DNA of 64,000 nucleotides from assembly GCA_036383255.1 (NCBI GenBank), contig DASVOS010000010.1, positions 62,001-126,000 of the forward strand. The letters run 5' to 3'. Shown in pieces: positions 11,823 through 61,061 of the stretch (position 1 is its first letter; each line of letters starts with the position of its first letter). The stretch comes from Gammaproteobacteria bacterium (GTDB lineage: Bacteria; Pseudomonadota; Gammaproteobacteria; Natronospirales; REEB76). The notes beneath the pieces are model-generated. The model was given only the letters and a program-made list of their open reading frames with translations, did not search any database and had not been told where the DNA came from. The position numbers were made by a program, and so were the translations under genes.

Positions 11823-12548
11823 ATGGACCACTTCAATTCCATCGGTGAATCAATTACCTCATTCGACGTGACCTGGATGCCCGTCGGGAAACTGGCGCGG
11901 CGGGTCATATCAAGAGCGAATAGCCGCAAGACCGCCAAGTACCCGTCCTTCCGGATGGGGCACATGCTCCATTGCGAATCCGAGCTCGAGCTTGATGGCG
12001 ACATCATGTTTGACGTCAATCCCGCCGTGACTCATATCCAGGCGCAACCAGCTGTCGTCCGAGTGCGTTTCTCCACCTGCGGAGTGGAAGAACGCCTGAC
12101 ACATTATCCGGATCGGCTCGTTCATCTTGGTGGCCGGCGGCTTGTTATTGAATACAAATACGAGGCAGAAGCGAACCACCCGGATGTGAAGGCCCGTACC
12201 GCCATGATGAAACATGGCTTTAGTGACCTCGGAATCAAATATGAGGTCTACACTGAAAGATTCGTCCGCAATCTTCCAGAGCGCGTAGCGACAGCAAAGA
12301 AAGTGCTCTTCCTAGGCCGCGATCCGGTTTCAGAGATTGAGCGTGAGCGAATCCGTCACATCTTCCTCGCCAATCCAGCAATAATCATGCGTGATGTACG
12401 TCAGGGCCTTCTCGGCGAACACGGCTTACCGAAGATCTGCAATCTCTACCTAACCGGACATGTGCAAATAGCTCTAAGCTGCGGCCTTGGGGACCTCACA
12501 GAAGTACGGTGGGCGGCTGCCGCAGCGCGACCACCGCCCACCGACTAA
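11823..12548 (+). CDS. tnsA: TnsA-like transposon endonuclease
   Basis: A 241-residue protein with a restriction-endonuclease-like fold. ESELELD (about residues 54-60), HYPDRLV (about 97-103) and IEYKYE (about 111-116) supply the Glu, Asp and Glu-x-Lys of the catalytic core. In Tn7, TnsA cuts the 5' ends of the element while TnsB cuts the 3' ends, giving cut-and-paste transposition. It is followed by tnsB after 94 bases. The start has an AGGGA ribosome binding site 5-6 bases upstream. It is the first transposition gene, 282 bp from the left end. Confidence 0.85.
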   Translation: MDHFNSIGESITSFDVTWMPVGKLARRVISRANSRKTAKYPSFRMGHMLHCESELELDGDIMFDVNPAVTHIQAQPAVVRVRFSTCGVEERLTHYPDRLVHLGGRRLVIEYKYEAEANHPDVKARTAMMKHGFSDLGIKYEVYTERFVRNLPERVATAKKVLFLGRDPVSEIERERIRHIFLANPAIIMRDVRQGLLGEHGLPKICNLYLTGHVQIALSCGLGDLTEVRWAAAAARPPPTD

Positions 12549-12642
12549 CCGTTAAGACCATTGGCTTGGCGGCCGGTGTACCACCACCGTTCGCCATCCC
12601 AGCAGACCCCAGCCCCAGTTCCCGCAGCCATATGGAGGACAT

Positions 12643-20669: not shown

Positions 20670-20693
20670 CGGTTCCCCTGCTTCCCGGATTCG

Positions 20694-21626: not shown

Positions 21627-21761
21627 GTTTATGCGTGGTTCGTGTTGTTCCCATGAGTATATGCGCCGCGGGCAGGGTGGCGCTTGTCTGCATTACCGGA
21701 AATCCGCAACATAGGTAGGAGTGCCTGGAGCCTTTGGCCTAGGGATTTTAGGGGCCCATGA

Positions 21762-22658
21762 ATGAACAGTATTCCCACGGCGCAGAACGCGCCTGAACAG
21801 CTCCAGCTGCTTGCAGCTCAGAGAGCCATCTATTCGAGAGCCAAGACGATCCTGGCCACGCAGCTGATATTGGCGCTGCCGGTGGCGATATTGCTCTCTT
21901 TTGCGGCCCTGTATTTCCCAGCTTCACGACCGTATACCGGCCTTGCCGGCGTTGTGATAGCGACGTTCGATGCGGTGATTCTGACCAAGTGGCAGGCGTC
22001 ATTGCGAAAGGCTGCGGCGGAAGTGCAGGAGGCTTTTGACTGCGCTGTTCTTGGGCTTCCGTGGAACCAGGTCAAGGTAAAGAAGCCGAGCCCTGAAACC
22101 ATCGCCGAATGGTCTCAGCGTTACTCCGATCCGGACAACTCTGCACCGCTAAGAGACTGGTATCGACCTGAATTCGGCGAGTTGCCAGTGGGTATAGCCC
22201 GCCTCTACTGCCAGCGTTCAAACATCGTGTGGGATGCGCGCCAACGCAGAATCTACTCGCGGATATTGCCCTTCATGGCTGCGGGCATATGTGTACTCGT
22301 GGTCACCATGGGTCTTCATTGGCAATTGACCATGGCGACCATCGTCCTGGCTGCAGTCTTGCCTCTGGCGCCATTGTTCCGCCTTTCTTACCGCGATTAC
22401 CAAGATCACAACGGTGCAGCGAACCGGCAAGAGGAAATCATTCGCCAAATTGATGGTGCCCTCGAGCGTGAAGCCACTGACGCTTCATTTGCTCGCGCAG
22501 TGCAGGACGAAATCTACGACTATCGAGTTCGCAGTGGCTTGGTGTTTGATTGGGTATTTAAGGTTCTCCGCAAGTCCTCCGAAGATAGGGCGAAGGGCGG
22601 GGCGCAGCGAGTCCTAGCTGAGCAGCGCAGACCGGATAAAAAGCGGAACGTCACCTAG
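21762..22658 (+). CDS. S-4TM family putative pore-forming effector (locus 1)
   Basis: A 298-residue protein with two pairs of membrane helices (about residues 28-75 and 165-215). It carries the family-typical segment EVQEAFDCAVLGLPWN, then RLYCQRSNIVWDARQR. S-4TM proteins are found next to SMODS cyclases and are thought to open membrane pores when the nucleotide signal appears. The CD-NTase gene follows after 13 bases. It is a clear paralogue of the gene at 35176-36096, sharing EAFDC.VL.L.WN at the same position. Confidence 0.8.
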   Translation: MNSIPTAQNAPEQLQLLAAQRAIYSRAKTILATQLILALPVAILLSFAALYFPASRPYTGLAGVVIATFDAVILTKWQASLRKAAAEVQEAFDCAVLGLPWNQVKVKKPSPETIAEWSQRYSDPDNSAPLRDWYRPEFGELPVGIARLYCQRSNIVWDARQRRIYSRILPFMAAGICVLVVTMGLHWQLTMATIVLAAVLPLAPLFRLSYRDYQDHNGAANRQEEIIRQIDGALEREATDASFARAVQDEIYDYRVRSGLVFDWVFKVLRKSSEDRAKGGAQRVLAEQRRPDKKRNVT

Positions 22659-22671
22659 GAAGGGGCATGCC

Positions 22672-23553
22672 ATGAGACAGGGAGTTCATCCGTCATATAA
22701 CTTCGAAGCGCTCCTGACGCGCACTAAACCACAGCCGGGAGAGCTGGGGCGAGCCAAAATCAATGCAGTCGCAGTCCGCAATCGACTGGCTCTCGAATTC
22801 CGAATTAGACGTGCCATGGCGATCGGCAGCCAGGTTCGCGGCACCGCTGTCCGCTATTACAGTGATGCTGACTACATGTATATATTCTCGCGTGACGACA
22901 CGAGGTGGGGTAGGGCGACAATCAACTCAACGACCCTGTTGGATAACGTTCGCTCTCTGCTGATCGGCAGATACCCCAACACAGAGATAGGTCGGGATGG
23001 CCAGGCGATCGTAATCGGTTTCGCCCAGGGGCAGAGGTCGATGGATATCGTGCCTGGCTGGTTCGACGGTTTCGAGAGTAGGCGACCCATCTACAAGATT
23101 CCGGACGGTGCAGGTGAGTGGATTAGAACAAGCCCCGAACTGCACGACAGCCTTTTTAAGACGGCGGATCTGCAGGCCCGAGGCAAGCTCTCTCGAACAA
23201 TAAGGCTGCTCAAATGGTGGAAGTACAGTAGGGCAACTCCGCTGCCGATCTCATCGTTCTATGCCGAACTGGTTCTAAGCTCCCTTGGCACCTGCGTTGG
23301 GGTGAAGAGCTATTCAACGTGCATGTATGACTCGCTCCTGGCACTGCACCAGCGCAATGGCCGGGCATTACAGGATCCGGCAGGAATCTCCGGTCTCATC
23401 CCAATGGCCAGCACGCAAGCCAAGCTCCAGCAGGCCAGAGAAGCGATTGCCAGCGCCTTGGATCGAGCGGCACGAGCATGCGACGCCGAGCGCGTACGGA
23501 ACCACCTTGAAGCTAACTACCAATGGAACCTGCTATTTAACGGCGAGTTTTGA
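22672..23553 (+). CDS. CD-NTase of the S-4TM CBASS (locus 1)
   Basis: A 293-residue cyclase with G52-S53, D65 and D67 (SDADYMY) and D125 (SMDIVPG), so the catalytic set is intact. It is very close to the enzyme at 36083-36964: same length, same residue spacing, and shared strings such as GRDGQAIVIGF/GRDKQAIVIGF and RTI.LLKWWK.SR. It forms a two-gene core with the upstream S-4TM effector. Its C-terminus (FNGEF) has no terminal Gly of the kind conjugated by type II Cap2. Confidence 0.85.
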   Translation: MRQGVHPSYNFEALLTRTKPQPGELGRAKINAVAVRNRLALEFRIRRAMAIGSQVRGTAVRYYSDADYMYIFSRDDTRWGRATINSTTLLDNVRSLLIGRYPNTEIGRDGQAIVIGFAQGQRSMDIVPGWFDGFESRRPIYKIPDGAGEWIRTSPELHDSLFKTADLQARGKLSRTIRLLKWWKYSRATPLPISSFYAELVLSSLGTCVGVKSYSTCMYDSLLALHQRNGRALQDPAGISGLIPMASTQAKLQQAREAIASALDRAARACDAERVRNHLEANYQWNLLFNGEF

Positions 23554-32922: not shown

Positions 32923-33422
32923 GAACGATTTTTAGAATAACCGACCAGATGATAGGTGAGATTCGCCGTGACCTGCAACGTCCTCACGACTTCGCTGCTG
33001 AGCGCGTTGGCTTTATTTCCGTTCGGGCAGATCAGACGGCTTCAAATCTCCTGCTAATAGGTGAGGGCTATCATCCGGTCGCGGACGAAGAGTACGTCGA
33101 CGACGCGAGCGTTGGTGCGATGATGGGACAGGAGGCAATCCGCAAGGCATTAGACATTGCGTTGTTAAAGCCGGTCGGAATGTTTCATGTGCACCTGCAC
33201 TCGCACCGAGGACGTCCGCGTTTCAGTCCTACAGATGTTCGGGAACAGCGTAAGTTCGTTCCCGATTTCTTTAAAGTTCGTCCGCATCCACATGGAGCCA
33301 TAGTCTTAAGTTTCAATCAGCAGTATGGAACCGTCTGGATGGGACCCACGCGGACCACGCCAATCTCGGAATTCAATATTATTGGGCCTCGGTTTTCGGC
33401 AGACATATTGGAAAAATTCTGA
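32919..33422 (+). CDS. JAB/MPN (JAMM) metallopeptidase
   Basis: A 167-residue MPN-domain protein. The zinc site is readable as E28, the H92-L-H94-S-H96 cluster, S103 and D106 (FSPTD), matching the JAMM pattern within one residue of spacing. In ubiquitin-like operons this enzyme trims the C-terminal tail of the Ubl or removes it from targets. The two extra Ser after Gly-Gly in the neighbouring Ubl are a natural substrate. It overlaps both neighbours by a few bases, so translation is coupled. Confidence 0.85.
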   Translation: MRTIFRITDQMIGEIRRDLQRPHDFAAERVGFISVRADQTASNLLLIGEGYHPVADEEYVDDASVGAMMGQEAIRKALDIALLKPVGMFHVHLHSHRGRPRFSPTDVREQRKFVPDFFKVRPHPHGAIVLSFNQQYGTVWMGPTRTTPISEFNIIGPRFSADILEKF

Positions 33423-34240
33423 TGAGCTATCAGAGTGACTTCAGTCGACAGCAATTTTTGGGCGATGACTCAGAGCGCATTCTGCGAGAAACGCGGGTCA
33501 CCATAGTAGGGTTGGGTGGAGGCGGTTCTCATATTGCGCAGCAGCTTGCGCACCTGGGGGTAGGCCATATTCGTCTCATCGATCCACAGCGGATTGATGC
33601 AAGCAATTTGAATCGGCTGATTGGAGCTACCGCACAGGACGTTGAACAAGAAACGCCCAAGGTCGAGATTGCCCAGCGCCTAATCAAGGGTATTCGGCCT
33701 TGGGTGAAGGTTGAAATGGCACAAAGCGAATGGCAAGCCGCCGCTTCGCTGATAAAGGATACCCACGTCCTATTTGGTTGCGTAGACGGATATATGCAAC
33801 GTAGCTATCTAGAAGCCGCTGCGCGCCGATATTGCCTTCCGTACATCGATATAGGCATGGATGTTACCAAGCTGGAAGAACGGCATTATGCCGTTGCAGG
33901 ACAAATGATCGTGTCCTTGCCTGGACGCCCATGCATGCGGTGTCTTGGGTTTCTTACGCAGCAACGACTGGACCAGGAAGAAGATGACTACGGAGATGCC
34001 GGCATAAATCCACAAGTGGTGTGGACCAATGGCACCCTTGCGTCTCTGGCCGTAGGGGCATTCGTTCGACTGGTTTGCCCGTGGGCGCCGTTCAAATATG
34101 ACTATGAGTGGTTGGAGTTGGATGGCAATAGCCAGCAGGTGACTTCTAGCAGGCAGCCTGACTACATGCCGAAACACCCATGTACACACTACAACCAATG
34201 TGATGTAGGTGACCCGTTTTTTAGGTGGAAGACAATCTAA
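33422..34240 (+). CDS. E1-like ThiF-family adenylyltransferase
   Basis: A 272-residue Rossmann-fold E1-like enzyme. The ATP site begins VTIVGLGGGGSHIAQQLAHL (about residues 23-42), followed by DPQRIDASNLNR. Zinc-binding pairs are CMRC (about 178-181) and CTHYNQC near the end. It should adenylate the Ubl C-terminus. It is a stand-alone single-domain protein, unlike the E1-E2 fusion Cap2 of type II CBASS. It is the last gene of the conjugation set, 62 bases before the first CD-NTase, with no terminator between. Confidence 0.9.
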   Translation: MSYQSDFSRQQFLGDDSERILRETRVTIVGLGGGGSHIAQQLAHLGVGHIRLIDPQRIDASNLNRLIGATAQDVEQETPKVEIAQRLIKGIRPWVKVEMAQSEWQAAASLIKDTHVLFGCVDGYMQRSYLEAAARRYCLPYIDIGMDVTKLEERHYAVAGQMIVSLPGRPCMRCLGFLTQQRLDQEEDDYGDAGINPQVVWTNGTLASLAVGAFVRLVCPWAPFKYDYEWLELDGNSQQVTSSRQPDYMPKHPCTHYNQCDVGDPFFRWKTI

Positions 34241-34302
34241 AGTGGGTTCGCAATCGCAAGCTTAGAGTAACTCTTTTCATTTTTGAGGGATTGGGATCTT
34301 AA

Positions 34303-35175
34303 ATGCCACGCACAATCGAGGAAGGCTTCCGCGACTTCCTGCCAAAACTTACACCTAGCTCTTGGGAATCCGAAGCCGCCAAGAGCCATCGCGCCTCGAT
34401 CGAGGCCTGTTTGTCCAATAACTTTGGACTGAACCGTTTTACGCGTATTGGCTCGTTCGGTAATGGCACCAGTATTTCGGGATACAGCGATGTCGACTAC
34501 ATGGCATGTCTTCCAAGCCAATCTCTGAGTATTAACTCCGCCACTGCTCTAACTAAGGTACGCAATGCCTTGGATGTTCGATTTCCAAACACGGGCGTAC
34601 ACGTGTCATGCCCAGCGGTTGTTGTACCGTTCGGTTCAACCTCATCGGAACAAACGGAAGTAGTTCCAGGAGACTACCGCCACGAGAGCAACGGATATTC
34701 GGTCTACGAGATCGCAGACGGCGCTGGCGGCTGGATGAAGGCGGCGCCTGATGCTCACAATGAATACGTCAGGTCGATAGACAAGAAATTGAGCGGGAAG
34801 GTTAAGCCTCTAATCAGATTTATTAAGGCCTGGAAATACTACCGAGACGTGCCAATCTCGTCATTCTATTTGGAGCTGCGAGTCGCCAAGTACGCTAATG
34901 GGGAAAAATCGATTGTCTACGACATTGATGTGGCCAGGGTTCTCCGTGAATTGGATTCCAATGGGCTTGCGGACATGCAAGACCCTATGGGGATATCTGG
35001 CTATATCCCTGCTTGTAGCTCGTTGGCTCAAAAGCAAGATGCGCTATCAAAGTTGGCAACCGCTACGTCTCGTGCCGACAAAGCAAGGACGGCGGCAAGC
35101 CAGGAAAAGATCTCGGATGCTTTTGATTGGTGGCGTCTGCTCTACGATTACAACTTCCCCACGTACTATCTCTAA
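34303..35175 (+). CDS. CD-NTase A of the Ubl-associated CBASS
   Basis: A 290-residue cyclase with G50-S51 and D63/D65 (YSDVDYM). The third acidic position appears as E119 (TEVVPG) rather than Asp, a tolerated but noteworthy change. It ends PTYYL, without the Gly end used for conjugation in type II CBASS. The S-4TM gene begins on the very next base after its stop. It is less similar to the two other S-4TM-linked cyclases than those are to each other, so the operon holds two distinct cyclases. Confidence 0.85.
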   Translation: MPRTIEEGFRDFLPKLTPSSWESEAAKSHRASIEACLSNNFGLNRFTRIGSFGNGTSISGYSDVDYMACLPSQSLSINSATALTKVRNALDVRFPNTGVHVSCPAVVVPFGSTSSEQTEVVPGDYRHESNGYSVYEIADGAGGWMKAAPDAHNEYVRSIDKKLSGKVKPLIRFIKAWKYYRDVPISSFYLELRVAKYANGEKSIVYDIDVARVLRELDSNGLADMQDPMGISGYIPACSSLAQKQDALSKLATATSRADKARTAASQEKISDAFDWWRLLYDYNFPTYYL

Positions 35176-36096
35176 ATGAACAACATACCTGCAAAACAAA
35201 ATGAACAAGAAGAGCTTAGAAAGCTCGCAGCTATGCGATTTACCTATTCGTCAGCCAAGATGGTTCTCTTCTGGCAGTTTTTTCTGAGCGTTCCCGTCTC
35301 TGTAACAGCCGCGATCTTGTCGCTGGCGTACCCAAGTCTCAAGGGTTATGCGACGTTCATAGGCTTGGTAGTGACCGCCTTGAACCTGGCGTGGCTGACC
35401 CCATGGCAGACACGTCTCCGAAAGCAGGCAGCTAACATCCAGGAAGCGTTCGATTGCTATGTGCTGGATTTGGAGTGGAACCCAATCAAGGCAGGCCAAC
35501 GCCCATTACCGGAGCTCATCAAAGAGAGAGCTGACCAGTATTTTCCAAATCGGACCGACTTCCCGGGTCTTAGGGATTGGTACCCCATCGTGGTTGGGAC
35601 TGTCCGGCTTGAGATAGGTCGAATTATCTGTCAAAGAGAGAACTGTGTTTGGGATGCCAAGCAGAGGCACTCCTATGCCACGGCAATGGTCTCTTTCATT
35701 GCGGCTTGTATTGTCGCGGTATTCGTAGCTGGCATGGTAGAAGGTCTTACGGTCGAGAAATGGATCCTCTCAGTCGTCGGACCACTAATACCGGCATTCA
35801 CATTTGCGTGGCAACAGGGGCGAGAGCACCGTGCTGCTGCGACGAGACTTGAGGATCTGAGAAACCATGCCGACGGCTTAGTGGATGCGGTACTCGGTGG
35901 GCTTGCGGATGGCCAAGCAACAGCGCTATCACGAAGCTTGCAGGACGAGATACTAGACTCTAGGCAGCGGAATGCTCCTGTCTTTGACTGGGTTTTCAAT
36001 TTTCTACGACCAGAGTACGAAGCACAGATGCGATATGGTGCCAAGGAGCTGGTTGCCAAGGTGGCGCGCAACGGAGGTGGAAGTGGATCGCAATAG
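35176..36096 (+). CDS. S-4TM family putative pore-forming effector (locus 2)
   Basis: A 306-residue protein with four membrane helices (about 28-75 and 165-215). It carries the conserved block IQEAFDCYVLDLEWN and RIICQRENCVWDAKQRH. It is paralogous to 21762-22658 along its whole length. It sits between two CD-NTase genes, starting next to the first and overlapping the second by 14 bases. It is presumably the killing component that senses one or both cyclic nucleotide products. Confidence 0.8.
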   Translation: MNNIPAKQNEQEELRKLAAMRFTYSSAKMVLFWQFFLSVPVSVTAAILSLAYPSLKGYATFIGLVVTALNLAWLTPWQTRLRKQAANIQEAFDCYVLDLEWNPIKAGQRPLPELIKERADQYFPNRTDFPGLRDWYPIVVGTVRLEIGRIICQRENCVWDAKQRHSYATAMVSFIAACIVAVFVAGMVEGLTVEKWILSVVGPLIPAFTFAWQQGREHRAAATRLEDLRNHADGLVDAVLGGLADGQATALSRSLQDEILDSRQRNAPVFDWVFNFLRPEYEAQMRYGAKELVAKVARNGGGSGSQ

Positions 36097-40175: not shown

Positions 40176-40351
40176 CCATCGGCCGGAAGGGGTCGAGTCT
40201 GGTTCCCGGTGGCGGAACCAGACTCGATCTGGGGCTTAAGTATCCGGCGTCGCTGCCTCTGGCGCCATGCCTTTTATGCAACTAGACTCACGGCCACAGG
40301 TTGGTCAGGGGAAGCAGCGCAGTCCAGCATCGGTATTCAGGGGAATCATCA

Positions 40352-43300
40352 ATGTGGTCCTATCTGTGGTATCCGCTGGGTTGGCTATTGCGGTCCAGCG
40401 AGTACCTGACAACGACTGAGCTGTTCTGCTGGTGGCGGAGCAATCCGCTTTACTGCGGGGAGCGCTATGGCATCGGCCAGTGGCTGATGGTCGGCATTGG
40501 CCGTCTGCCGCGCCAAACCGCCTTCGAGCTGGGGGCCTTACAGATACTGCTCTTCATCAACCTGCTTGAGTACGAGCCAAGCTGGCCGTTCCCGGAGTTC
40601 AAGGCATTCGAGGACCACGCGACGCTGGTGGCGTACTTCAGCTCGCCGTGGATGTTGCAGGGCACCATCGTGGCCCTCACGTTCCCCATCGTGGTGGTCC
40701 TCATCGCGTTCCTGTTCCAGAAGCGTGACGAGTCCGATGTGCGGCTACGAATCTACCTGGGCGATTCCTGCGCCCTGGTCGTGACCGTGTCGTCGCTATC
40801 ACTGGCCCTGTGCATGACCATCCAGTACGTGTTGCTCTGGTTCGACGACCGCTACCTGGTGCAGTGGGTCATGGTGATGGACATCGCATGGTTTGTCGCC
40901 AACATCGCCGGTACCCTGTACTTCCTGTACAGCTCGTTCGCGTTCCTGGTTCCGGAGTCCCGGTCCCGGACCATCCGCCGCTACGTCTTCACGGTCATCT
41001 GGCCGGAGCAGGTGCGCAGCCTGTTCAAGCAGTGGCTGGTGGTGCAGGCAGCAGACGATCCCACGCTGCTACCCGAGGGTCGGCATAGCATCTATATCGG
41101 ATCCAACTGGAGGGCGTACGGTGATCCAGTCAGCGAGCGGTACTTCTTCTGGCAGGTCTATCTCTCCGCCATCAACTTCCGCATCCTAGAGTGGGCCCTG
41201 AGATTGTGGCGGCGGAAGCTGAACCGCACTCCCCAGACCAAGACATCCCGGCAGAAGCTATTGGGACAAGAACCCAAGCTGCTGCTCCCTGTGGATTTCG
41301 ACACCCCGTCGAAGGGGAAGATGAGCGTGGTCCGCGTGCTGGCCGGCGAGCAACCAGGCTGGGTGACCCGGCTGCTCCTGTGGTTTGCCCTCTGCTGGAC
41401 GCAGCGGGCACCCGCGCCGCGGCCCCAGGTTGAGGATTTGCTCGAGGAGTTCAAGGGCGATGTCCTGGAGGCGCTTCACAGCAGTCGCCAGGAGCTGTTC
41501 AAGAAGTCCTACAAGGAGCTGCTCAGCTTCATCGTGCTCCTTATCCGCTCCAGCGCCTACTCGAAGGGCAGGGAGAAGGGGAACTTCGCGTTGTTGATGG
41601 ACCGGAGCGGCCTGAACGTGATGCACCAGAAATGGCTACGCATCAACGTGCCGATCTTCGATGCGGCGACCAAGACCCTGAAGGACGACGACTTCTATTT
41701 CCGGCAGGTCACCGGCGTGCCGTATCGCCTCGCCATCGAGCTGAACGGGCTGGAGCACTTGGATTTCAAGCGATCCGCTGTGTTCCTGTCCAATACGATC
41801 TGGTGGGTACTGGGCAACTGGTGGAACCGCGCCGTCGAGGACCAGGGCGTGCTCGAGCACTCCAAGTGTGTCCCCGTGGAGCTGAAGCCGCCGCTGCGGT
41901 CAGCCTACAACGCGGCGCTGAACGACTTCGTCGGCTCCTACGAGACCCTGCGTTCCATCGGTTTCGACCCTTTCGACAAGGTGTCATTCGAGGCGTGGCC
42001 GCGGGCCCAGGACACGACCCGGCTGCACATGCTGCATATCTCGCAGATCCTGAATATGGTATTCACCGCCGTGCATCGCGGAGACACCATGGGGGCGGAG
42101 GCCGCGCTCGACATGTTGCAGCGCTGGGCGGACACCTTGGACCTCCGCCTGGGCGGCATAACCGGCCTGCCGATGCGTGGGTGGCGGCTGACTGTCAACG
42201 ACGTGATCGGCAAGGACGTGGAGGAGGTGGAGAAGCTGATCAATGATGCCGACGATCTGTCGGACATGAGCGGCAACGAGGCGGCGGCGCTGGTGGGCCG
42301 CGCCATCAAGAACTTGTGGCAGGACATGACTGTGCTTGCCGCCCTGGGATTGCTGCTGTCCGGCGCCGAATGCAAGGGGGACCAACCTTTGTCGTCCCGG
42401 CTCGGGCGGAGCCTCATCGATGGGATCACGACCCGCGCCGGGGGCACACGCGCGGGCGGATGGCGGCCGGCTCGTGGCCGGTCAGACGTCTTGCAGATCA
42501 TCTTCCGCCAGTATTCATCGCGTGGTGCGGCGGGCGACTACGGCATGTATCTCGACCAAGTCTGGACGGCCATGCACGAGATCGGCAACGAGCCGGCGAT
42601 CTCGGGCCGCATCTACAGCATGAACAGTAACGTGCCCGACCAAGACAAGGTGATGGGGGTACAGCTCCTGTACCTGATGGTCTCGGAGGTGGGTCCGTGG
42701 CATCCGGAACGGCAGTTCAGCCAGTACGTGTCCGGGTTGGTGAGCACGGACAACGAGGCCACCCAGCGTTTGCGCGACTACGTGAAGCTGCTCTTGGCCA
42801 GAGTGGAGGGACAGGAGTTCGAGGGCCTGGTGGAGACCTACCAGCGGCTGCGCAAGGACTCGACCCGTGATGATTTCGAGGCCCAGCGCGCCATCGTGCG
42901 CGACGGGCTACGCGCTTTGGCTGAGATGTTCGACGCGGCGCTGAACCAAGATCTTGCTAACGCCGAGTTCGATGTTGAGCGCTTGCGGGAAGTGGAGGAG
43001 TGGGCGTCCGCGACGGGCTTCATCCCCGCGCGCAGCATCGCGCCCGTTTCCATGTTCCGCCGCGCCGAATATGCCCCTGACATAGGCATCGAGCACGCGC
43101 TGACCATCAACAAGATGGGCAAGGGCGAGTTCGTGACGCCCAGGCGCGGCACTGTGGCCCTGAATGAGCAGGACTGGTTCGACGCCACCGTCCGCGACCG
43201 TGTGGCCCTCACAGTAACCTCGGACCTCATCACAGGTCTAGACCTGCAAACGGTCTCGACCGCCTCCCCCGAGGCTTATTGGGAAGCGTTCGAGCGCACC

Positions 43301-43756
43301 GCAAAATACTTGCGCGGCAGGAACCTGACCCCGGTGCTGCTGATCGACTACGCCGGTCCTCCGGGATGGCTGCGCTATTGGATCTCGACGGTCCAGCCGC
43401 AGGGCACGTTCGTGCCGAAGGACCTCCAGGTCACCTTCGACCGCCCGCGGGGCGGCATTTCGGGGTACCTTGCCACGCTCAATGGCGTCCAGGTCTACCG
43501 TGCCTACATACCTCGCCAGCAGTCTCTGATGCTACCGTCCGAGACCTTCGACACCATTCGGTTCAGGACATACATCGGAGGCCACACCGTGCTGGCGTCC
43601 ATCGCGGAGGAGCCCACGGATCCACGGTTGGTCAACCTGACGTTGAAGTGGGCGCATGAGATCAAGTACGACGAGAGCCTGCGGTCCCTGGCGACGCGCT
43701 TCATGTATGGGGCGAAGACAGAGCCAGAAGAGTTGGCGCCAAAGGCAGGCGGATGA
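40352..43756 (+). CDS. Very large membrane protein of unknown function
   Basis: A 1134-residue protein starting at the ATG preceded by GGGGA. At least four membrane helices lie in the first 210 residues (for example VALTFPIVVVLIAFLF and VTVSSLSLALCMTIQYVLLW). A soluble region of about 900 residues follows, mostly helical, and becomes beta-rich near the end (PVLLIDYAGPPGWLRYW, VQVYRAYIPRQQ). No known domain was recognised. A secreted small protein is encoded directly after it with a 4-base overlap, so the two work together. The size, membrane anchor and place in defence cargo make a sensor or effector plausible, but this is inference. Confidence 0.65.
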   Translation: MWSYLWYPLGWLLRSSEYLTTTELFCWWRSNPLYCGERYGIGQWLMVGIGRLPRQTAFELGALQILLFINLLEYEPSWPFPEFKAFEDHATLVAYFSSPWMLQGTIVALTFPIVVVLIAFLFQKRDESDVRLRIYLGDSCALVVTVSSLSLALCMTIQYVLLWFDDRYLVQWVMVMDIAWFVANIAGTLYFLYSSFAFLVPESRSRTIRRYVFTVIWPEQVRSLFKQWLVVQAADDPTLLPEGRHSIYIGSNWRAYGDPVSERYFFWQVYLSAINFRILEWALRLWRRKLNRTPQTKTSRQKLLGQEPKLLLPVDFDTPSKGKMSVVRVLAGEQPGWVTRLLLWFALCWTQRAPAPRPQVEDLLEEFKGDVLEALHSSRQELFKKSYKELLSFIVLLIRSSAYSKGREKGNFALLMDRSGLNVMHQKWLRINVPIFDAATKTLKDDDFYFRQVTGVPYRLAIELNGLEHLDFKRSAVFLSNTIWWVLGNWWNRAVEDQGVLEHSKCVPVELKPPLRSAYNAALNDFVGSYETLRSIGFDPFDKVSFEAWPRAQDTTRLHMLHISQILNMVFTAVHRGDTMGAEAALDMLQRWADTLDLRLGGITGLPMRGWRLTVNDVIGKDVEEVEKLINDADDLSDMSGNEAAALVGRAIKNLWQDMTVLAALGLLLSGAECKGDQPLSSRLGRSLIDGITTRAGGTRAGGWRPARGRSDVLQIIFRQYSSRGAAGDYGMYLDQVWTAMHEIGNEPAISGRIYSMNSNVPDQDKVMGVQLLYLMVSEVGPWHPERQFSQYVSGLVSTDNEATQRLRDYVKLLLARVEGQEFEGLVETYQRLRKDSTRDDFEAQRAIVRDGLRALAEMFDAALNQDLANAEFDVERLREVEEWASATGFIPARSIAPVSMFRRAEYAPDIGIEHALTINKMGKGEFVTPRRGTVALNEQDWFDATVRDRVALTVTSDLITGLDLQTVSTASPEAYWEAFERTAKYLRGRNLTPVLLIDYAGPPGWLRYWISTVQPQGTFVPKDLQVTFDRPRGGISGYLATLNGVQVYRAYIPRQQSLMLPSETFDTIRFRTYIGGHTVLASIAEEPTDPRLVNLTLKWAHEIKYDESLRSLATRFMYGAKTEPEELAPKAGG

Positions 43757-49249: not shown

Positions 49250-52102
49250 ATGACCCGAGCCTCCGCCATCCCCGCCGTATTGCTTCCCGCGCTGGAAGCG
49301 GCCGAGTCCCGTTACCGTGAGAACGGCGGCGCTCCCGAGCGTCCGCCGGCGGCGGCCGCCGAGACCTTGTCGCGGGTATGGGCGGTGAGCGGTTTCGTGG
49401 CGCAGAACTGCGCCCGCGACCCCAAGTTCCTGGAGGAGCTGGCCGCCTCCGGCGACCTCAACTCCGACGCCTCGCCCGCCGCGCGGGTGCAGGCCCAGCT
49501 GAAGGACGTGCCGGACGAGCGGGTGCTGATGACGCGCCTGCGCCAGATCCGCCGCCGCGAGATGACGCGCATCGCCTGGCGCGACCTCGCCGGCGGCGCG
49601 GACCTGGACGAGACCCTGCGCGACCTCTCCGACCTCGCCGACGCGCTCACCCAGGGCGCGCTCACGCACCTCGCCCGCTGGCACGCGGAGCGACACGGCA
49701 CGGCGCGCAACGACAAGGGCGTGGCCCAGTCGCTGGTGGTGCTGGGCTTGGGCAAGCTCGGCGCCCGCGAGCTCAACTTCTCCTCGGACGTGGACCTCAT
49801 CTTCGCCTACCCCGAGGGCGGCGCTAGCGACGGCGAGCGGCCCCTGGACAACGAGGAGTACTTCCTGCGCCTCGCGCAGAAGCTCGCCAAGGCGCTGGAC
49901 GAGTCCACCGCCGACGGTTTCGTGTTCAGGGTGGACCTGCGCCTCAGGCCTTTCGGCGAGGCGGGGCCGGTGGCCCTCAGCTTCGACGCCATGGAGACCT
50001 ACTACCAGAACCACGGCCGCGAGTGGGAGCGCTACGCGTTCATCAAGGCGCGGCCCATCGCCGGCGACATCAAGGCCGGCGAGAAGCTGCTGCAGGCGCT
50101 CAGGCCCTTCGTGTACCGCCGCTACCTCGACTACGGTGCCTTCGAGTCCCTGCGCGACATGAAGGCGATGCTGGCGCAGGAGGTGGAGCGGCGCGGCCTC
50201 TCGGACAACGTGAAGCTCGGCCCCGGCGGCATCCGCGAGATCGAGTTCATCGGCCAGGTGTTCCAGCTCATCCGCGGCGGGCGCGAGCCGCAGCTGCGTG
50301 AGCGCGGCATCGTGCCGGTATTGAAGTACCTGGGCTCCAAGGACTACCTGGACCCCAAGGACGCAGCGGCGCTGCTCAACGCCTACGTGTTCCTGCGCCG
50401 GGTCGAGAACCGCCTGCAACAGGCCGGCGACCAGCAGGTGCATGAGCTGCCGGAGGACGAGCTCGGCCGCGTGCGCCTGGCCTTCAGCATGGGCTACCCG
50501 GACTGGGCCGCGCTCAAGCAGGAACTGGACGTGCAGCGCGAGGCGGTGCATCGCATCTTCCAGAACGTGGTGGTGGCCCCCAAGGCGGTGCAGGAAGAGG
50601 CCAAGAACGCCGTGGCCTGGGCCGACGACGCGGAGGCCGAGGCGCGCCTGGCGGCGCTGGGCTACGCCGATCCCAAGGAGGGCGCGCGGGTGCTGCACTC
50701 GCTGCGGGAGGGCGCCACGCGGGAGCAGGGCGAGCGCTCGCGCCGCCTGCTGCAGGCGCTCCTGCCCCGGCTCGTGACCGCGGCGGTGGAGGCGAGGAAG
50801 GAAGGCGTCACGCCCGACGAGACCTTGAAGCGCCTGGCGCGGGTGGTGGAGGCCATCGCCAAGCGCTCGGCTTACCTCTCGCTGCTGACCGAGAACCCTA
50901 CGGCCCTGGGCCAGCTCGCCCGGCTCGCCGCCGAGAGCGTGTGGCTGGTGGACATGGTGGTGCGCTCGCCGATCCTCTTGGACGAGCTCATCGATCCGCG
51001 CATCTTCAAGGAGTTTCCCTCCCAGGACTCGCTGTACGCCGAGATGGAAAGTATGCTCGCCGGCATCGCACCTGATGACCTCGAGATGCAGATGGACGCG
51101 CTGCGCCAGTTCCAGCAGGCGGCAGTGGTGCACGCCGCCGCGGCGGACCTGGCCGGCAACGCGCCGCTCATGAAGGTGAGCGACTTCCTGACCTGGACCG
51201 CCGAGCAGGTGATCCGCAAGGCGCTGGAGATCGCCTGGCGCCAGCTCATCAAGCGCCACGGCCGGCCCCAGTGCATCGAGCACGGCCGCCTGCGCGACGC
51301 GCGCTTCGCGGTGGTGGCCTACGGCAAGCTCGGCGGGCTCGAGCTCGGCTACGGCTCGGACCTGGACGTCGTGTTCCTGCACGACAGCCGCAGCGCCGAG
51401 CAGCAGACCAACGGCCCCAAGGTGCTGGACAACCTGGAGTTCTTCACGCGCCTCGCGCAGCGGGTCATCAACATCCTCTCCATCCCGACCACCTCGGGCG
51501 TGCTCTACCAGGTGGATACGCGCCTCAGGCCCAGCGGCGGAGCCGGACTGATCGTGAGTTCCATGGACGGCTTCGCCCAATACCAGGAGCAGCAGGCCTG
51601 GACCTGGGAGCATCAGGCGCTCCTGCGCGCCCGGCCGGTGGCCGGCGACAAGGAGGTGGCGGAGCTCTTCAACGGCGTGCGCCGCTCGGTGCTGGGACGT
51701 CCGCGGGACAAGGACAAGCTGCGGGAGGACATCGCCGCCATGCGCGCGCGCATGCGCGAGGAGCACAAACGCGTGGGGCAGGACTTCGACCTCAAGCTCG
51801 ATCCCGGCGGCCTCACGGACATCGAGTTCATGGTGCAATACTGGGTGCTGGCCCATGCCCACGAGCACCCCAAGCTGCTGGACTGGACCGACAACATCCG
51901 CAACCTGGAAGGGCTCATCGCCGCGGGCGTGGTGCCCGAGGCCACCTGCAACTTCCTGGCGGACACCTACCGGGACTTCCGCCGCCGCGTGCACCGCCTG
52001 ACCCTGGAGGGCCGTCCGGCCCGGGTGCCCCCTTACGAGGTGGAACCGGCCCGGCAGCAGGTGCGGGAGCTGTGGCAGAAGACCTTAGGGCCGGCTGCAT
52101 AG
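49250..52102 (+). CDS. glnE: Glutamine synthetase adenylyltransferase/adenylyl-removing enzyme
   Basis: A 950-residue protein, normal length for GlnE (E. coli 946). It holds two nucleotidyltransferase domains: GLGKLGARELNFSSDVDLIF in the N-terminal (deadenylylating) half and AYGKLGGLELGYGSDLDVVF in the C-terminal (adenylylating) half, joined by helical linkers. It controls glutamine synthetase according to the nitrogen signal carried by PII. Both active sites look intact. The very long open frame on the opposite strand is a high-GC shadow. Confidence 0.97.
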   Translation: MTRASAIPAVLLPALEAAESRYRENGGAPERPPAAAAETLSRVWAVSGFVAQNCARDPKFLEELAASGDLNSDASPAARVQAQLKDVPDERVLMTRLRQIRRREMTRIAWRDLAGGADLDETLRDLSDLADALTQGALTHLARWHAERHGTARNDKGVAQSLVVLGLGKLGARELNFSSDVDLIFAYPEGGASDGERPLDNEEYFLRLAQKLAKALDESTADGFVFRVDLRLRPFGEAGPVALSFDAMETYYQNHGREWERYAFIKARPIAGDIKAGEKLLQALRPFVYRRYLDYGAFESLRDMKAMLAQEVERRGLSDNVKLGPGGIREIEFIGQVFQLIRGGREPQLRERGIVPVLKYLGSKDYLDPKDAAALLNAYVFLRRVENRLQQAGDQQVHELPEDELGRVRLAFSMGYPDWAALKQELDVQREAVHRIFQNVVVAPKAVQEEAKNAVAWADDAEAEARLAALGYADPKEGARVLHSLREGATREQGERSRRLLQALLPRLVTAAVEARKEGVTPDETLKRLARVVEAIAKRSAYLSLLTENPTALGQLARLAAESVWLVDMVVRSPILLDELIDPRIFKEFPSQDSLYAEMESMLAGIAPDDLEMQMDALRQFQQAAVVHAAAADLAGNAPLMKVSDFLTWTAEQVIRKALEIAWRQLIKRHGRPQCIEHGRLRDARFAVVAYGKLGGLELGYGSDLDVVFLHDSRSAEQQTNGPKVLDNLEFFTRLAQRVINILSIPTTSGVLYQVDTRLRPSGGAGLIVSSMDGFAQYQEQQAWTWEHQALLRARPVAGDKEVAELFNGVRRSVLGRPRDKDKLREDIAAMRARMREEHKRVGQDFDLKLDPGGLTDIEFMVQYWVLAHAHEHPKLLDWTDNIRNLEGLIAAGVVPEATCNFLADTYRDFRRRVHRLTLEGRPARVPPYEVEPARQQVRELWQKTLGPAA

Positions 52103-57199: not shown

Positions 57200-57292
57200 G
57201 TGAAGGAAGTTATCGGATTTTTGTGCCGCAGCTGTGGTTCTACAGCTCGAGCGGCGTTTTCTCCTCAGGATTTACTTGGAGTAAAAAGGTGA
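57200..57292 (+). CDS. 30-residue CxxC peptide coupled to the STAND gene
   Basis: A GTG-started frame whose TGA overlaps the GTG start of the STAND gene. The product includes FLCRSCGSTARAAF, a possible zinc knuckle. AGGGAA lies about 9 bases upstream of the start. It may be a leader peptide that couples translation, or coincidental. Confidence 0.3.
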   Translation: MKEVIGFLCRSCGSTARAAFSPQDLLGVKR

Positions 57293-60200
57293 AAATACTC
57301 TTAGTCCATTTAAGCGATATTCACATTAAGAGTAAATCCGACGGTATTCTCAGCCGCGCACAGTTGATAGCAGCGTCAATATTTTCTCATTTACATCAAG
57401 CCGATGTCGTATTTTTTGTGGTGTCAGGCGATATAGCTTGGAGTGGTCTACGAGATCAGTATAGCGAAGCAAAAAAGTTCTTTTCTGAAATTGAAAGACA
57501 TCTGCTAGCAGAACGAAATGTTCCAATTCATTGGATTTTGGCTCCCGGTAATCATGATTGTGACTTTACTGCTGGTATGCCGTCAGTACGTGAGACGGTC
57601 GTTAACGAAATCGCGAGGTCTGAAGGTGAGCAAATAACCGATGACAAGATCAAAATTTGTACAGATGTACAGTCAGAGTTTTTTGATTTTAGAAGTGAGA
57701 TGTCCTCTGGTTTGGAGATGAGTTACGGAGATAGATTGCTGGTTCGCTATAAATTCAACCTGAATGGCAAAGAACTGACCTTTGACTGCCTAAACGTTGC
57801 ATGGTTATCCGTAAGAAGTGAGGAGCAAGGGAAATTATATTTTCCCTATGAGCGTTACGCCGCTTTAGCGTCCCTCGATTCTTCTCTTCGGATAGCTGTA
57901 ATGCATCACCCGTTAAATTGGTATGGACAAGCAACTTATCATCCGTTTCGTAGATTTCTAAGAGGAACATACAATTTACTTCTATCTGGCCATGAACATC
58001 AGCAGGGCGCTGGCGTCAACGATGATCTATTTGCTGGGCAAAGTGCGTATTTAGAGGGGGGCGTACTTCAGTCGCATGATAAAGATCAGCTTGCAGGATC
58101 ATCATTTAATGTGGTGCTGATCGATACGGAAGACAAGTTATTTAAAAGCGACATGTTTAAGTGGCATTCTTCTCGATACATTTCTGAAGATGGCGGATCT
58201 TCATGGGCAGACTATAGAAGGCTTCCAGAAAAAAGTACGAATCAGTTTGTAGTTGAAGCCTCCTTTATGGAAATTTTGAATGATCCTGGGGCTACCTTTC
58301 GACATCCAACAAAGCAGTCTCTTAGACTGCACGACGTGTTCATATACCCCGACATTCGCAAGAGAGATGATGATAGTCGAGGACAGAAAGGTATTCTAAG
58401 TAGTTCTACACTTCGGACAGTTGAGAGCATTAAGAATGGCTTATTGCTACGGGGAGATGAAAAATACGGAAAAACTAGTCTCTTGTTTCAACTTTTTCTT
58501 CACTATCACGATCTTGGAATGGTTCCGCTGTATCTGAATGGGGCTTCAATTGATGGCGCTAGTGAAACAGATATTTTAAAAAAGGTAGACCGTGCTGTTA
58601 AAGAACAGTATGGAGCAGCAAATGTGGCTTTGTTTAAGCAGACGTCGCGAGATAGAAAAATACTTTTGCTAGATGACATCGATCAGATTCGGATTCCGCA
58701 GAAATTTCAAGGCGCCGCTTTATCAGTTTTATTAAGAGGCTATATTGGTTTTATAGCGACATCTGATCAAGTCTTTGAGATTAGTGAAATTGCCTCGTCA
58801 GATTTCGCTGCACTGGCAAAGCTTTGGGATCAATATGAAGTATTGGCATTTGGACACAAATTGCGCTATCAATTAGTAAAGAAATGGAATGCACTTGGAG
58901 ATGTGCGTCTAACCAAGCTAACGGAATCTGAAAAGAAAAATGCGAAGGCTGAAGAGCTGCTTAATAAAGTTATCGGAAAAAATTATGTGCCTTCTGCGCC
59001 AATTTATTTGCTCACGCTTTTACAAAGCGTTGAGTCGATAAAAGGGAACGATTTAGCGAATAGCGCATTTGGACACTATTATCATTATTTGATAGTTCAG
59101 TCATTGAATGAAGCGGCAATAAAACCGGATCGTCTCGATGAGTTATTCCATTATTGCTCTCAACTGGCTTGGTTCGTAAAACAAGGCTCACTTCGTGAGC
59201 TAAGTCATGAAGATTTACAGAAGTTCAATTTAGATTTTTCTGAGAAATACCTTGCGGTAGATTTGGGCGTTCGCATTGAAGAGTTAATTGCTTCAAAAAT
59301 TCTCAGCAGACGCGGGAGCTACTACCATTTTACTTATCCATATCATTTTTATTTTTTCTTGGGACGATATTTGTCTGAAAATATTACGCGAGAAGACATC
59401 CGTGCATATATAAAGCACTATTGTTCACATTTATACGTTCGTGAACATGCCAACACTATTTTATTTTTGACTCACCATTCGAAGGATCGATTCATCTATG
59501 AGTCAATTATGACAGTCCTAAAAGATCTTTTTAAGGACGTCAACGCTCTAGACCTGGAAACTGATACAGAACTGCTTAATGCGCTTGTGAATGAGGCTCC
59601 CAAGCTTGTCTATCACGACGGCGATGTAGAGAAACGACAAGAGGAGATGAGAGCGGCTCAAGATGACTACGATGCGAAGCATCCGATAGAGAAGGAATCG
59701 AATGCTACTGAGCAAGTGGGAAAACTAGAGTTGTGGGCGCAGCTCAATTTGGCAGTTAAGACAGCCGAAATTCTCGGTCAAATCTTAAAGAACCATTATG
59801 CGTCAATTGAGAATCCACAAAAGGAACTAATGACGGACGAAATCTTCTCTGGGTCATTGAAAGCAACTCGGAAGATACTAGATGAATTACTGGCGCGACG
59901 AGAGCTTCTAATTAGCACTATGGAAGGAGCCATAAAAAAATCAGAGGATTCGCTCAAAGATGAAAAATTAAATGATCGTGCCAAGCGAGCGATGTTTAAT
60001 ATGCTTGGCTTAATGACACTCGCCTTTATTTGTAAGACAGCTAGTTGTGTTAATTCAGAATATATTAGGGGTGTCGTGCGGAAGGTTGCCAAAAACAACG
60101 GTTCAAATGCTTATGAATTGATAGATATAGCCGTAAGCCTTGATTTTCCAGGGTCAATTCCATTTGATGATATTAGAGCCTTAAAAGAAGAAAATGAAAG

Positions 60201-60369
60201 CAACATATTTGTGAAACGTCTTTTGCAGTCACTTGTTATTGCCCACCTTTATATGTTCAAGACTCAGGATGCTGATAAACAGCGTCTATGTTCAATTTTG
60301 GATATAGATATTTCTTATCAGCGCATGATTGATGTACGAGGCAAAGATGTTAAGAAGGCCAAGTACTAA
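57289..60369 (+). CDS. Metallophosphoesterase-STAND NTPase, putative antiviral protein
   Basis: A 1026-residue protein from the GTG at 57289 (GGAG upstream). Residues 1-300 are a calcineurin-like phosphoesterase: LSDIHI (D10, H12), SGDIAWSG, GNHDCD, MHHPLNW and SGHEHQ give a full di-metal site. Residues about 380-650 are a STAND/NACHT-like ATPase with Walker A GDEKYGKTS (about 389-397) and Walker B ILLLDDID (about 455). A long helical C-terminal part (650-1026) may sense the trigger. The order, with enzyme at the front, switch in the middle and sensor at the end, is that of Avs-type defence proteins. The strong AT bias against the chromosome indicates recent transfer. Confidence 0.75.
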   Translation: MKILLVHLSDIHIKSKSDGILSRAQLIAASIFSHLHQADVVFFVVSGDIAWSGLRDQYSEAKKFFSEIERHLLAERNVPIHWILAPGNHDCDFTAGMPSVRETVVNEIARSEGEQITDDKIKICTDVQSEFFDFRSEMSSGLEMSYGDRLLVRYKFNLNGKELTFDCLNVAWLSVRSEEQGKLYFPYERYAALASLDSSLRIAVMHHPLNWYGQATYHPFRRFLRGTYNLLLSGHEHQQGAGVNDDLFAGQSAYLEGGVLQSHDKDQLAGSSFNVVLIDTEDKLFKSDMFKWHSSRYISEDGGSSWADYRRLPEKSTNQFVVEASFMEILNDPGATFRHPTKQSLRLHDVFIYPDIRKRDDDSRGQKGILSSSTLRTVESIKNGLLLRGDEKYGKTSLLFQLFLHYHDLGMVPLYLNGASIDGASETDILKKVDRAVKEQYGAANVALFKQTSRDRKILLLDDIDQIRIPQKFQGAALSVLLRGYIGFIATSDQVFEISEIASSDFAALAKLWDQYEVLAFGHKLRYQLVKKWNALGDVRLTKLTESEKKNAKAEELLNKVIGKNYVPSAPIYLLTLLQSVESIKGNDLANSAFGHYYHYLIVQSLNEAAIKPDRLDELFHYCSQLAWFVKQGSLRELSHEDLQKFNLDFSEKYLAVDLGVRIEELIASKILSRRGSYYHFTYPYHFYFFLGRYLSENITREDIRAYIKHYCSHLYVREHANTILFLTHHSKDRFIYESIMTVLKDLFKDVNALDLETDTELLNALVNEAPKLVYHDGDVEKRQEEMRAAQDDYDAKHPIEKESNATEQVGKLELWAQLNLAVKTAEILGQILKNHYASIENPQKELMTDEIFSGSLKATRKILDELLARRELLISTMEGAIKKSEDSLKDEKLNDRAKRAMFNMLGLMTLAFICKTASCVNSEYIRGVVRKVAKNNGSNAYELIDIAVSLDFPGSIPFDDIRALKEENESNIFVKRLLQSLVIAHLYMFKTQDADKQRLCSILDIDISYQRMIDVRGKDVKKAKY

Positions 60370-60378
60370 GCATGTGTG

Positions 60379-60412
60379 TCTAGTATGCATGGGGTGCTAG
60401 AGTTCTTTTTTT
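60379..60412 (+). terminator. Possible terminator after the STAND gene
   Basis: A TCTAG/CTAGA stem (60379-60383 and 60397-60401) followed by a run of seven T residues. The stem is short, so strength is uncertain. Confidence 0.4.
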
Positions 60413-61061
60413 ATCTATTGATAAAGTCTCCTGCCGTGGCTTTGTTGATATCTAGCGGTTTTATCGCTTCGTACTTTTCCAGTTTTTCTTTGGCCTCGTC
60501 CTCCGGGATAGCCTCGCCGTCCAGGAAGTAGGACGTGTGCTTCACGTTGGTGGTGTCCAGATAGTCGACGGTCACCAGGTTCTCGAGCTTGCTCTCCACG
60601 AAACTCTTGTTGACGGGCAAGGGCTCGTTGCGCAGGGAGTTCTCGAGCCCTATGTAGCGCGCGTTGTTGGCGCCGCCGCTGAACACGAACAGGGTACCCA
60701 CCGAGGAATCCGTGCGGTGGGAGACGGGGTAGTAGCCGATGAGCGGCACCAGGGAGGTCTCGCGCTTGCCGTCCACCGAGAGGGTGAGGGCGATGAAACT
60801 GTAGACCTGGCAGTGGATGTTGTAGGCGAATCCGCTCACGTTGTTCACGTAGAGCTGGGTCTCGTCGTACTTCTGGGTGCCGGGGTTGAAGATGTAGGAC
60901 GTCTGCACCGAGAAGTGCGGCTGCTGGGCCTGGGAGTTCAGGGCCAGCTGCTGGTTGCTGATGCGGTAGGAGGCGAGGGAGACGAACAGCGCGGCGAGGC
61001 CGAACAGCAGCGAGGTGAAGATCTCGAAATAGATTTTGTTGCGTTCGAGGAAGCTTTTCAT
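60411..61061 (-). CDS. Membrane-anchored protein of unknown function
   Basis: A 216-residue protein with one N-terminal membrane helix (about 13-32, FEIFTSLLFGLAALFVSLAS) and a beta-rich domain (45-185). The last 40 residues are helical and are encoded by noticeably more AT-rich DNA next to the STAND insertion. This suggests that the insertion junction lies within the 3' end of this gene. No family was recognised. The start lies about 150 bases from the second palindromic element. Confidence 0.6.
   Translation of the reverse strand: MKSFLERNKIYFEIFTSLLFGLAALFVSLASYRISNQQLALNSQAQQPHFSVQTSYIFNPGTQKYDETQLYVNNVSGFAYNIHCQVYSFIALTLSVDGKRETSLVPLIGYYPVSHRTDSSVGTLFVFSGGANNARYIGLENSLRNEPLPVNKSFVESKLENLVTVDYLDTTNVKHTSYFLDGEAIPEDEAKEKLEKYEAIKPLDINKATAGDFINR

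What the first reader, a model, noticed from the sequence alone, without database searches (positions are those of the whole stretch)
57200..60410. AT-rich solitary metallophosphoesterase-STAND protein
A complete di-metal phosphoesterase site is fused to a STAND-type ATPase with a long sensor region. Enzyme-STAND fusions of the Avs kind are antiviral. The composition shows recent import as a single gene with no visible mobility genes.
Basis: partly seen in the sequence, partly recalled or inferred. Interest (0 to 1): 0.66.

Follow-up and report, generated by a model that had tools for sequence, protein, structure and literature searches.

The report
DS-8-type anti-phage phosphoesterase NLR-like protein
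This AT-rich gene encodes a predicted one-protein anti-phage alarm: a metal-dependent phosphoesterase joined to an NLR-like ATPase and a helical sensor. It belongs to the DS-8 family, whose defence role was published in 2026, and some relatives carry a different killing domain or lack the usual key lysine of the ATPase.

Summary
One intact ORF (GTG 57289 to 60369, 1026 aa, GC3 0.36 against 0.77-0.97 in neighbouring genes) encodes a di-metal phosphoesterase, a STAND/NACHT-like P-loop ATPase and a C-terminal helical array. It is not a new system: it matches NCBIfam NF053861 "DS8_antiphage" (1123.6 bits, cut-off 790). In the DefensePredictor paper (PMC13092281), mutants of either domain of DS-8 lost protection. 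Kinship to Avs is not shown.

Three things go beyond the label. (1) The ATPase-sensor core is also fused to TIR domains, so the effector is swappable: among relatives found by profile, 5 carry a phosphoesterase, 5 a TIR domain, and 2 remote ones something else. (2) In 16 of 69 relatives the Walker A lysine is Ala, Cys or Arg (four changes on the tree), while the phosphoesterase metal ligands are kept in 69 of 69. (3) The gene sits at a convergent waaF-BrkB junction that is short in 4 of 6 testable relatives and filled differently in 2.

Likely mechanism: phage sensing, ATPase-driven assembly, then phosphoesterase attack on a nucleotide or nucleic acid. Substrate and trigger are unknown.

The parts
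57278..57281 (+). GGAG, likely ribosome-binding site
   Evidence: read directly, 7 bases before GTG 57289
57289..60369 (+). DS-8 family protein, 1026 aa (GTG start, TAA stop)
   Evidence: NCBIfam NF053861 1123.7 bits, cut-off 790, profile 1-994/994 (1123.6 with the longer frame)
57289..58188 (+). calcineurin-like metallophosphoesterase domain (residues 1-300), ligands D10 H12 D48 N88 H89 H206 H235 H237
   Evidence: Pfam Metallophos 3.7e-11; VIA-align Z 28.3 to YydB chain, 20.6 to Rv0805, 19.2 to SMPDL3A
58189..58428 (+). linker and start of the shared core (residues 301-380)
   Evidence: low confidence 302-307 in the model; core shared with TIR proteins begins near residue 322
58429..58893 (+). 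STAND/NACHT-like P-loop NTPase (residues 381-535): Walker A 389-396, Walker B 457-463, conserved R526 and W533
   Evidence: motifs; Foldseek matches to NOD2 and NLRP3 NACHT, E 2.8e-8 to 1.1e-6
58894..59337 (+). helical and winged-helix-like part (residues 536-683); nSTAND_NTPase4 match at residues 637-691
   Evidence: Pfam PF24406 9.9e-13; model secondary structure; 'winged-helix-like' is inferred
59338..60366 (+). C-terminal helical array, presumed sensor (residues 684-1026)
   Evidence: predicted alone at mean pLDDT 93.2; no PDB match at E <= 0.001; sensor role inferred

Best explanation
It is a single-gene anti-phage system of the DS-8 family, built like an NLR: N-terminal effector (di-metal phosphoesterase), central STAND/NACHT-like NTPase, C-terminal helical sensor. 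Proposed working: a phage component binds the C-terminal array; nucleotide exchange in the NTPase opens the protein and lets it assemble; the clustered phosphoesterase domains then hydrolyse a phosphodiester or pyrophosphate substrate (most likely a nucleotide or nucleic acid), which stops phage growth, probably at the cost of the cell. Shown elsewhere for DS-8: defence, and need for both domains. Shown here: family membership, intact metal and nucleotide motifs, NLR-like fold, swapping of the effector with TIR on the same core. Inferred: sensor role, assembly, substrate, abortive outcome.
For: NF053861 equivalog at 1123.6 bits, cut-off 790. The paper reports that DS-8 defends, and that phosphoesterase and NACHT mutants lose defence. 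Metal-site residues invariant in 69 of 69 aligned homologues. Foldseek gives NLR NACHT domains and phosphoesterases from one model (model). PADLOC-DB holds both versions under one candidate, PDC-S60. ORFs within 4.5 kb of homologues hold phage integrases 12 of 150 against 2 of 150 farther out, and N6 methylases 5 against 1. Rare and patchy: over the cut-off in 1 of 56 close genomes, the own one, and in 2 of 369 of the class, the own one included.
Against: No assay of this protein. Its identity to the relatives aligned is 39% at most, and the E. coli DS-8 itself could not be compared (one search found no DNA match). Substrate and trigger are unknown; the sensor has no recognisable fold. The natural loss of the Walker A lysine in 16 of 69 relatives sits badly with a simple ATP-hydrolysis cycle.
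Confidence: 0.78

Rival explanations
1. The phosphoesterase is a signal eraser: on phage sensing it degrades a cyclic nucleotide made by host or phage, as SMPDL3A degrades cGAMP, rather than acting as the killing effector.
For: The DS-8 authors propose a cyclic-nucleotide substrate from the resemblance to SMPDL3A. SMPDL3A is matched here at Z 19.2. CBASS-type cyclases lie in the same window.
Against: SMPDL3A is not the best match: YydB is at Z 28.3, and purple acid phosphatases, Rv0805 and Lmo2642 at 20.5-20.7, so the fold does not single out cGAMP. The same core carries TIR in place of the phosphoesterase, which fits an effector slot better than an eraser. No cyclase is among the 25 most frequent PADLOC families near homologues (257 rarer families were not shown).
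Confidence: 0.15
2. The phosphoesterase is a nuclease effector, like Mre11/SbcD-type enzymes, that cuts phage or host DNA or RNA after assembly. This is a sub-case of the best explanation that names the substrate.
For: Mre11 structures match at Z 16.1-16.9. The phosphoesterase domain of homologue L025 matches a PADLOC CBASS effector model labelled Endonuclease at 1.9e-15.
Against: Small-molecule phosphoesterases score higher. The window protein itself did not hit that PADLOC model at E up to 1.
Confidence: 0.3
3. It is a true Avs (AVAST) protein that recognises phage terminase or portal.
For: Same general layout of enzyme, STAND ATPase and long C-terminal region.
Against: No Avs model reported by PADLOC at E up to 1; no Avs chain listed for the C-terminal model or by sequence profile. 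These are not exclusions.
Confidence: 0.06
4. A housekeeping or decaying import with no present defence role.
For: GC3 still far from the host's; promoter-like sites no more than in shuffles.
Against: Full-length frame with all metal ligands and NTPase motifs; patchy presence; the family is tested in defence.
Confidence: 0.08

Closest known systems
DS-8 (NCBIfam NF053861, DefensePredictor, PMC13092281)
   Same: Single protein with metallophosphatase and NACHT-type NTPase; full-length profile match above cut-off.
   Different: This copy is an AT-rich gene in a GC-rich contig of another organism; not assayed; the E. coli sequence was not compared directly.
PADLOC candidate PDC-S60
   Same: Models PDLC05050 (2.5e-95, core) and PDLC05051 (2.3e-35, phosphoesterase side) both match; TIR versions match PDLC05050 too.
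   Different: Only a candidate label; the library gives no mechanism.
DS-9A anti-phage phosphoesterase (NF053862)
   Same: Related phosphoesterase domain, 1.2e-9.
   Different: 37.6 bits, far below its cut-off 420; different architecture with a HAD partner gene.
TIR-STAND proteins sharing the core (plasmid loci L098, L100; genomes behind L112-L114, L116, L134, L137)
   Same: Homologous NTPase and sensor over residues about 322-1024.
   Different: TIR in place of the phosphoesterase.
Avs (AVAST) STAND proteins
   Same: General layout effector-STAND-sensor.
   Different: No sequence or fold link found here; not excluded.
Bacillus subtilis YydB (PDB 9a6c chain B; organism recalled)
   Same: Closest phosphoesterase fold: Z 28.3, rmsd 3.0, 294 residues.
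   Different: 481-residue chain matched only over its first 317 residues; the entry is an integrative model.

Membership tests
DS-8 (NF053861) | Score above NCBIfam's curated cut-off over the full profile | tested here: met
   1123.7 bits, cut-off 790, profile 1-994/994
DS-8 (NF053861) | Metallophosphatase domain with intact catalytic residues | tested here: met
   the exact residues mutated in the paper were not seen (figures and tables not held)
DS-8 (NF053861) | NACHT-type NTPase with intact nucleotide site | tested here: met
   GDEKYGKT and KILLLDD; NACHT matches. 16 of 69 homologues lack the lysine
DS-8 (NF053861) | Single-gene system | tested here: met
   no co-directional partner next to it: the flanking genes are DUF5062 and a 216-aa ORF, both on the minus strand
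DS-8 (NF053861) | Protects against phage, dependent on both domains | not testable with these tools
   published for E. coli DS-8 only
STAND/NACHT NLR-like proteins | P-loop NTPase with NACHT-like fold between effector and C-terminal array | tested here: met
   Foldseek NOD2 2.8e-8, NLRP3 8.1e-7; Pfam nSTAND_NTPase4 9.9e-13
Avs (AVAST) | Sequence match to Avs models | tested here: inconclusive
   none among PADLOC matches at E up to 1; that Avs models are in this library is recalled, not shown by a call
Avs (AVAST) | C-terminal sensor like the Avs sensor region | tested here: inconclusive
   no Avs chain in the lists; absence from a list excludes nothing
Avs (AVAST) | Triggered by terminase or portal (recalled) | not testable with these tools
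   needs experiment
SMPDL3A-like cGAMP phosphodiesterase | Fold match that sets SMPDL3A apart from other phosphoesterases | tested here: inconclusive
   Z 19.2, behind YydB 28.3 and about level with purple acid phosphatases, Rv0805 and Lmo2642 at 20.5-20.7; the fold neither singles it out nor excludes it

The most novel reading that the evidence does not exclude
DS-8 is one member of a chassis in which a single NTPase-sensor core is paired with interchangeable effectors (phosphoesterase, TIR, perhaps nucleases). Within it, a lineage close to this gene has dropped the Walker A lysine (Cys, Ala or Arg instead) while keeping the other nucleotide-site residues tested, so these NLR-like sensors fire by nucleotide binding or release without canonical hydrolysis, possibly with the lysine three residues upstream taking over.
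Probability: 0.3. Interest if true: 0.6.

Novelty: new member of a known kind. Interest (0 to 1): 0.36.

Why it matters
The gene adds a clean, intact DS-8 outside E. coli, in a tractable single-gene form. The wider gain is comparative. The effector swap argues that the phosphoesterase is the executioner rather than a signal eraser, a question the DS-8 paper leaves open. The natural lysine-less members make it directly testable whether ATP hydrolysis is needed in this class of bacterial NLR-like proteins.

Tried and rejected
Association of lysine 392 with loss of lysine 395: 13 of 16 Lys-less members have K392 against 7 of 53 others (Fisher p 7.7e-7), but on the tree there are only 4 independent pairs (same way in 2.5 on average, never the other way, median p 0.25). 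Not claimed as compensation.

Signature PGNHDCDF as an invariant family mark: rejected as ascertainment bias. It was one of the six scan patterns. Homologues found by profile or by the NCBIfam model have GNHDC followed by other residues.

One origin of the TIR fusions: not decided. The quick tree needs 3 changes, and holding the TIR rows together is not rejected (p 0.50); long branches are present.

Flanking repeats as integration marks: none convincing. Promoter and terminator scan: no excess over shuffles. Sequence search of solved structures: no member of the family, only generic P-loops and phosphoesterases. C-terminal fold: best VIA-align Z 8.2 to a designed protein, Foldseek nothing at E <= 0.001; no Avs chain in either list. 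Phage records: no match. E. coli genomes by DNA: no match. Viral contigs: 2 relatives at 24-25% identity, not read further. Paper searches for PDC-S60 (0 papers), nSTAND4 and calcineurin with TIR, SMPDL3A with anti-phage, bNACHT and lysine-less STAND in defence: nothing on the lysine loss in the listings seen; the library lacks most subscription papers.

Rows dropped: of 80 loci (94 confirmed there), 68 went into A1 with the window. L015 and L034 were near copies by eye; L027, L039, L056, L068, L071, L073, L076, L077, L080 and L081 were open, short or broken in frame. A2 used 35 of these 69. For the neighbour counts, 43 loci gave 310 near and 205 far ORFs, of which 150 and 150 were scanned; the ORFs were called crudely by length.
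Full report
What is there. The frame 57223-60369 on the + strand is open. GTG 57289 with GGAG at 57278-57281 is the likely start, giving 1026 aa. GC is 0.404 and GC3 0.363; the eleven neighbouring genes measured have GC3 0.767-0.968. The 100-base GC profile falls at about 56900 and rises again at about 60500. The AT-rich block is therefore one gene plus its upstream spacer.

Domains. Pfam gives Metallophos (3.7e-11) and nSTAND_NTPase4 (9.9e-13). NCBIfam gives DS8_antiphage, an equivalog model, at 1123.6 bits with cut-off 790. PADLOC gives PDC-S60 with two models. An AlphaFold2 model on 69 sequences has mean pLDDT 87.2 and pTM 0.72. Foldseek on that model finds NOD2, NLRP9, NLRP3 and NLRP7 chains together with Rv0805, GpdQ and purple acid phosphatases. 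VIA-align puts the phosphoesterase nearest to the YydB chain (Z 28.3), then a tie of purple acid phosphatases, Rv0805 and Lmo2642 (20.5-20.7), with SMPDL3A at 19.2 and Mre11 at 16.1-16.9. The last 343 residues, predicted alone, form a confident helical array (pLDDT 93.2) with no PDB match at E <= 0.001 and a best Z of 8.2, which for helical arrays means little.

What is known. The DefensePredictor paper (PMC13092281; I saw the abstract, search passages and section 7) reports DS-8 as a one-protein system with metallophosphatase and NACHT domains. It states that mutating either of two metallophosphatase residues or one NACHT residue abolished defence, and suggests a cyclic-nucleotide substrate by resemblance to SMPDL3A. 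Earlier domain surveys (PMC8195603 and PMC7159879; passages only) already list calcineurin-like phosphoesterases among variable effectors of STAND and other conflict systems. The kind is therefore known, and this gene is a member.

Conservation. In 69 aligned proteins (window plus 68 of 80 fetched loci) the metal-site residues D10, H12, D48, N88, H89, H206, H235 and H237 are invariant. The longer string PGNHDCDF was a scan pattern, so its invariance is partly selected, N88 and H89 included. Phosphoesterase homologues found by profile keep GNHDC but vary after it. The metal residues outside that pattern are not affected by this bias.

Natural lysine loss. Walker A position 395 is Lys in 53 of 69, Ala in 6, Arg in 6, Cys in 4. 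Thirteen of the sixteen Lys-less proteins form one group in the tree (support 92, not starred) within the 24-row starred group that also holds the window protein; three Arg cases lie elsewhere. Parsimony needs four changes between Lys and non-Lys. All sixteen keep G394, T396, S397, D462, R526, W533 and P571. All sixteen match NF053861 at 1e-100 or better. Of eight scored one by one, seven pass the DS-8 cut-off (796.4-1178.2 bits) and one is just under it (L046, 785.1). Within the 13-member group the NTPase part is 39.9% identical on average, against 44.9% for the phosphoesterase; in a Lys-bearing comparison set the figures are 31.2% and 35.1%, so the NTPase does not look like a decaying part. 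The window protein itself has the lysine. A link with lysine 392 is suggestive by counts but not independent of descent.

Effector swap. A protein search of 72,556 plasmid records gave 17 records. Two covered at least 80% of the query and are annotated metallophosphoesterase; five matched only from residue 287, 322 or 344 onward and are annotated TIR; the other ten matched the phosphoesterase side only. A profile of the core (35 sequences) over 398 Pseudomonadota, 398 Bacillota and 395 Bacteroidota genomes gave 6, 4 and 6 genomes with matches, known ones included (the phylum names follow from the loci used as centres). Leaving out G000, G450, G451 and G452, the N-terminal parts were phosphoesterase in 5 (G101, split over contig ends; G840; G1208; G993; G1116), TIR in 5 (G366, G077, G150, G238, G1157), and another domain in 2 remote matches that cover only the NTPase side (G845, G645). 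The TIR calls rest on reading the sequence, on plasmid annotation, and for L098 and L137 on a PADLOC ThsB TIR-like match. An NF053861 search of 369 class genomes gave 2 over the cut-off (own and G1391, 35% identical, lysine present) and 2 TIR proteins below it. The six TIR rows of the tree (two of them from plasmids) keep the lysine.

Surroundings. In the window the order is glnE, glycosyltransferase, hldD-like epimerase and waaF, then a 274-aa ORF, a 3-dmu-9 family gene, DUF5062, the DS-8 gene, a 216-aa ORF and BrkB (names such as glnE, hldD and waaF are recalled from the sequences, not from a family call). waaF and BrkB converge. Ten of eleven same-family genomes hold BrkB. In six of these ten waaF lies on the same stretch: the gap between matches is about 0.62-0.83 kb in four (G001, G005, G006, G007), about 6.6 kb in G002 and about 7.5 kb in G003, with other genes (one gene of G003 is a homologue of the window's 3-dmu-9 gene), against 6.1 kb here. 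The other four could not be judged. The DS-8 profile is over its cut-off in 1 of 56 close genomes, the own one. The gene thus sits at a junction that holds different cargo in different relatives.

Family surroundings. For 43 homologue loci with long flanks, 150 of 310 ORFs within 4.5 kb and 150 of 205 farther ORFs were scanned. Phage integrases: 12 against 2. N-6 methylases: 5 against 1. PADLOC families matched at 1e-10: 282 against 105. This fits mobile defence cargo, with the caution that ORFs were called crudely and related loci are not independent.

Reading. The best-supported account is an NLR-like, one-protein anti-phage system whose phosphoesterase is the effector. Steps shown here: family, intact motifs, fold, effector exchange. 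Steps published for DS-8: defence and need of both domains. Steps inferred: sensing by the helical array, assembly, substrate, abortive outcome. The SMPDL3A argument for cGAMP is weak, because several phosphoesterases of other specificity match about as well or better.

Verdict. Observation confirmed; interpretation right on antiviral role and import, unproven on Avs kinship; novelty limited to a new member of a known family, with the lysine-less relatives and the effector exchange as the parts worth following.

Noticed in passing
window 11823-16845: Tn7-like transposition genes: TnsA-like (25.4 bits, just under Pfam's cut-off 26.5), Mu-type transposase, TniB and TniQ, at the start of a lower-GC island that runs to about 47 kb.
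   Followed up: partly
window 19770-23553 and 33422-36096: Three CBASS-type cyclases, one next to a patatin-like phospholipase and two next to 4TM effectors, plus an E1-like protein, all in the same island.
   Followed up: partly
window 17971-19734: 587-aa protein with DACNG and DACNH probable sensor domains next to the cyclase-phospholipase pair.
   Followed up: no
window 40301-43756: 1151-aa open frame in the island without a Pfam match at 0.001.
   Followed up: no
window 51308-51392: A tRNA-Ser call inside the glnE frame, probably a false positive.
   Followed up: no
L021 3917-8395: A DS-8 homologue frame reads on into a second protein of about 450 aa (1492 aa in all), which from memory resembles DUF4238; fusion or sequencing error not tested.
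   Followed up: no
L025 7992-11048: The phosphoesterase of this homologue matches a PADLOC CBASS effector model labelled Endonuclease at 1.9e-15, hinting that related phosphoesterases also serve CBASS.
   Followed up: no
window 60411-61061: 216-aa minus-strand ORF with an N-terminal hydrophobic stretch (by eye) and no Pfam, PADLOC or NCBIfam match at E up to 1, convergent with the DS-8 gene.
   Followed up: no
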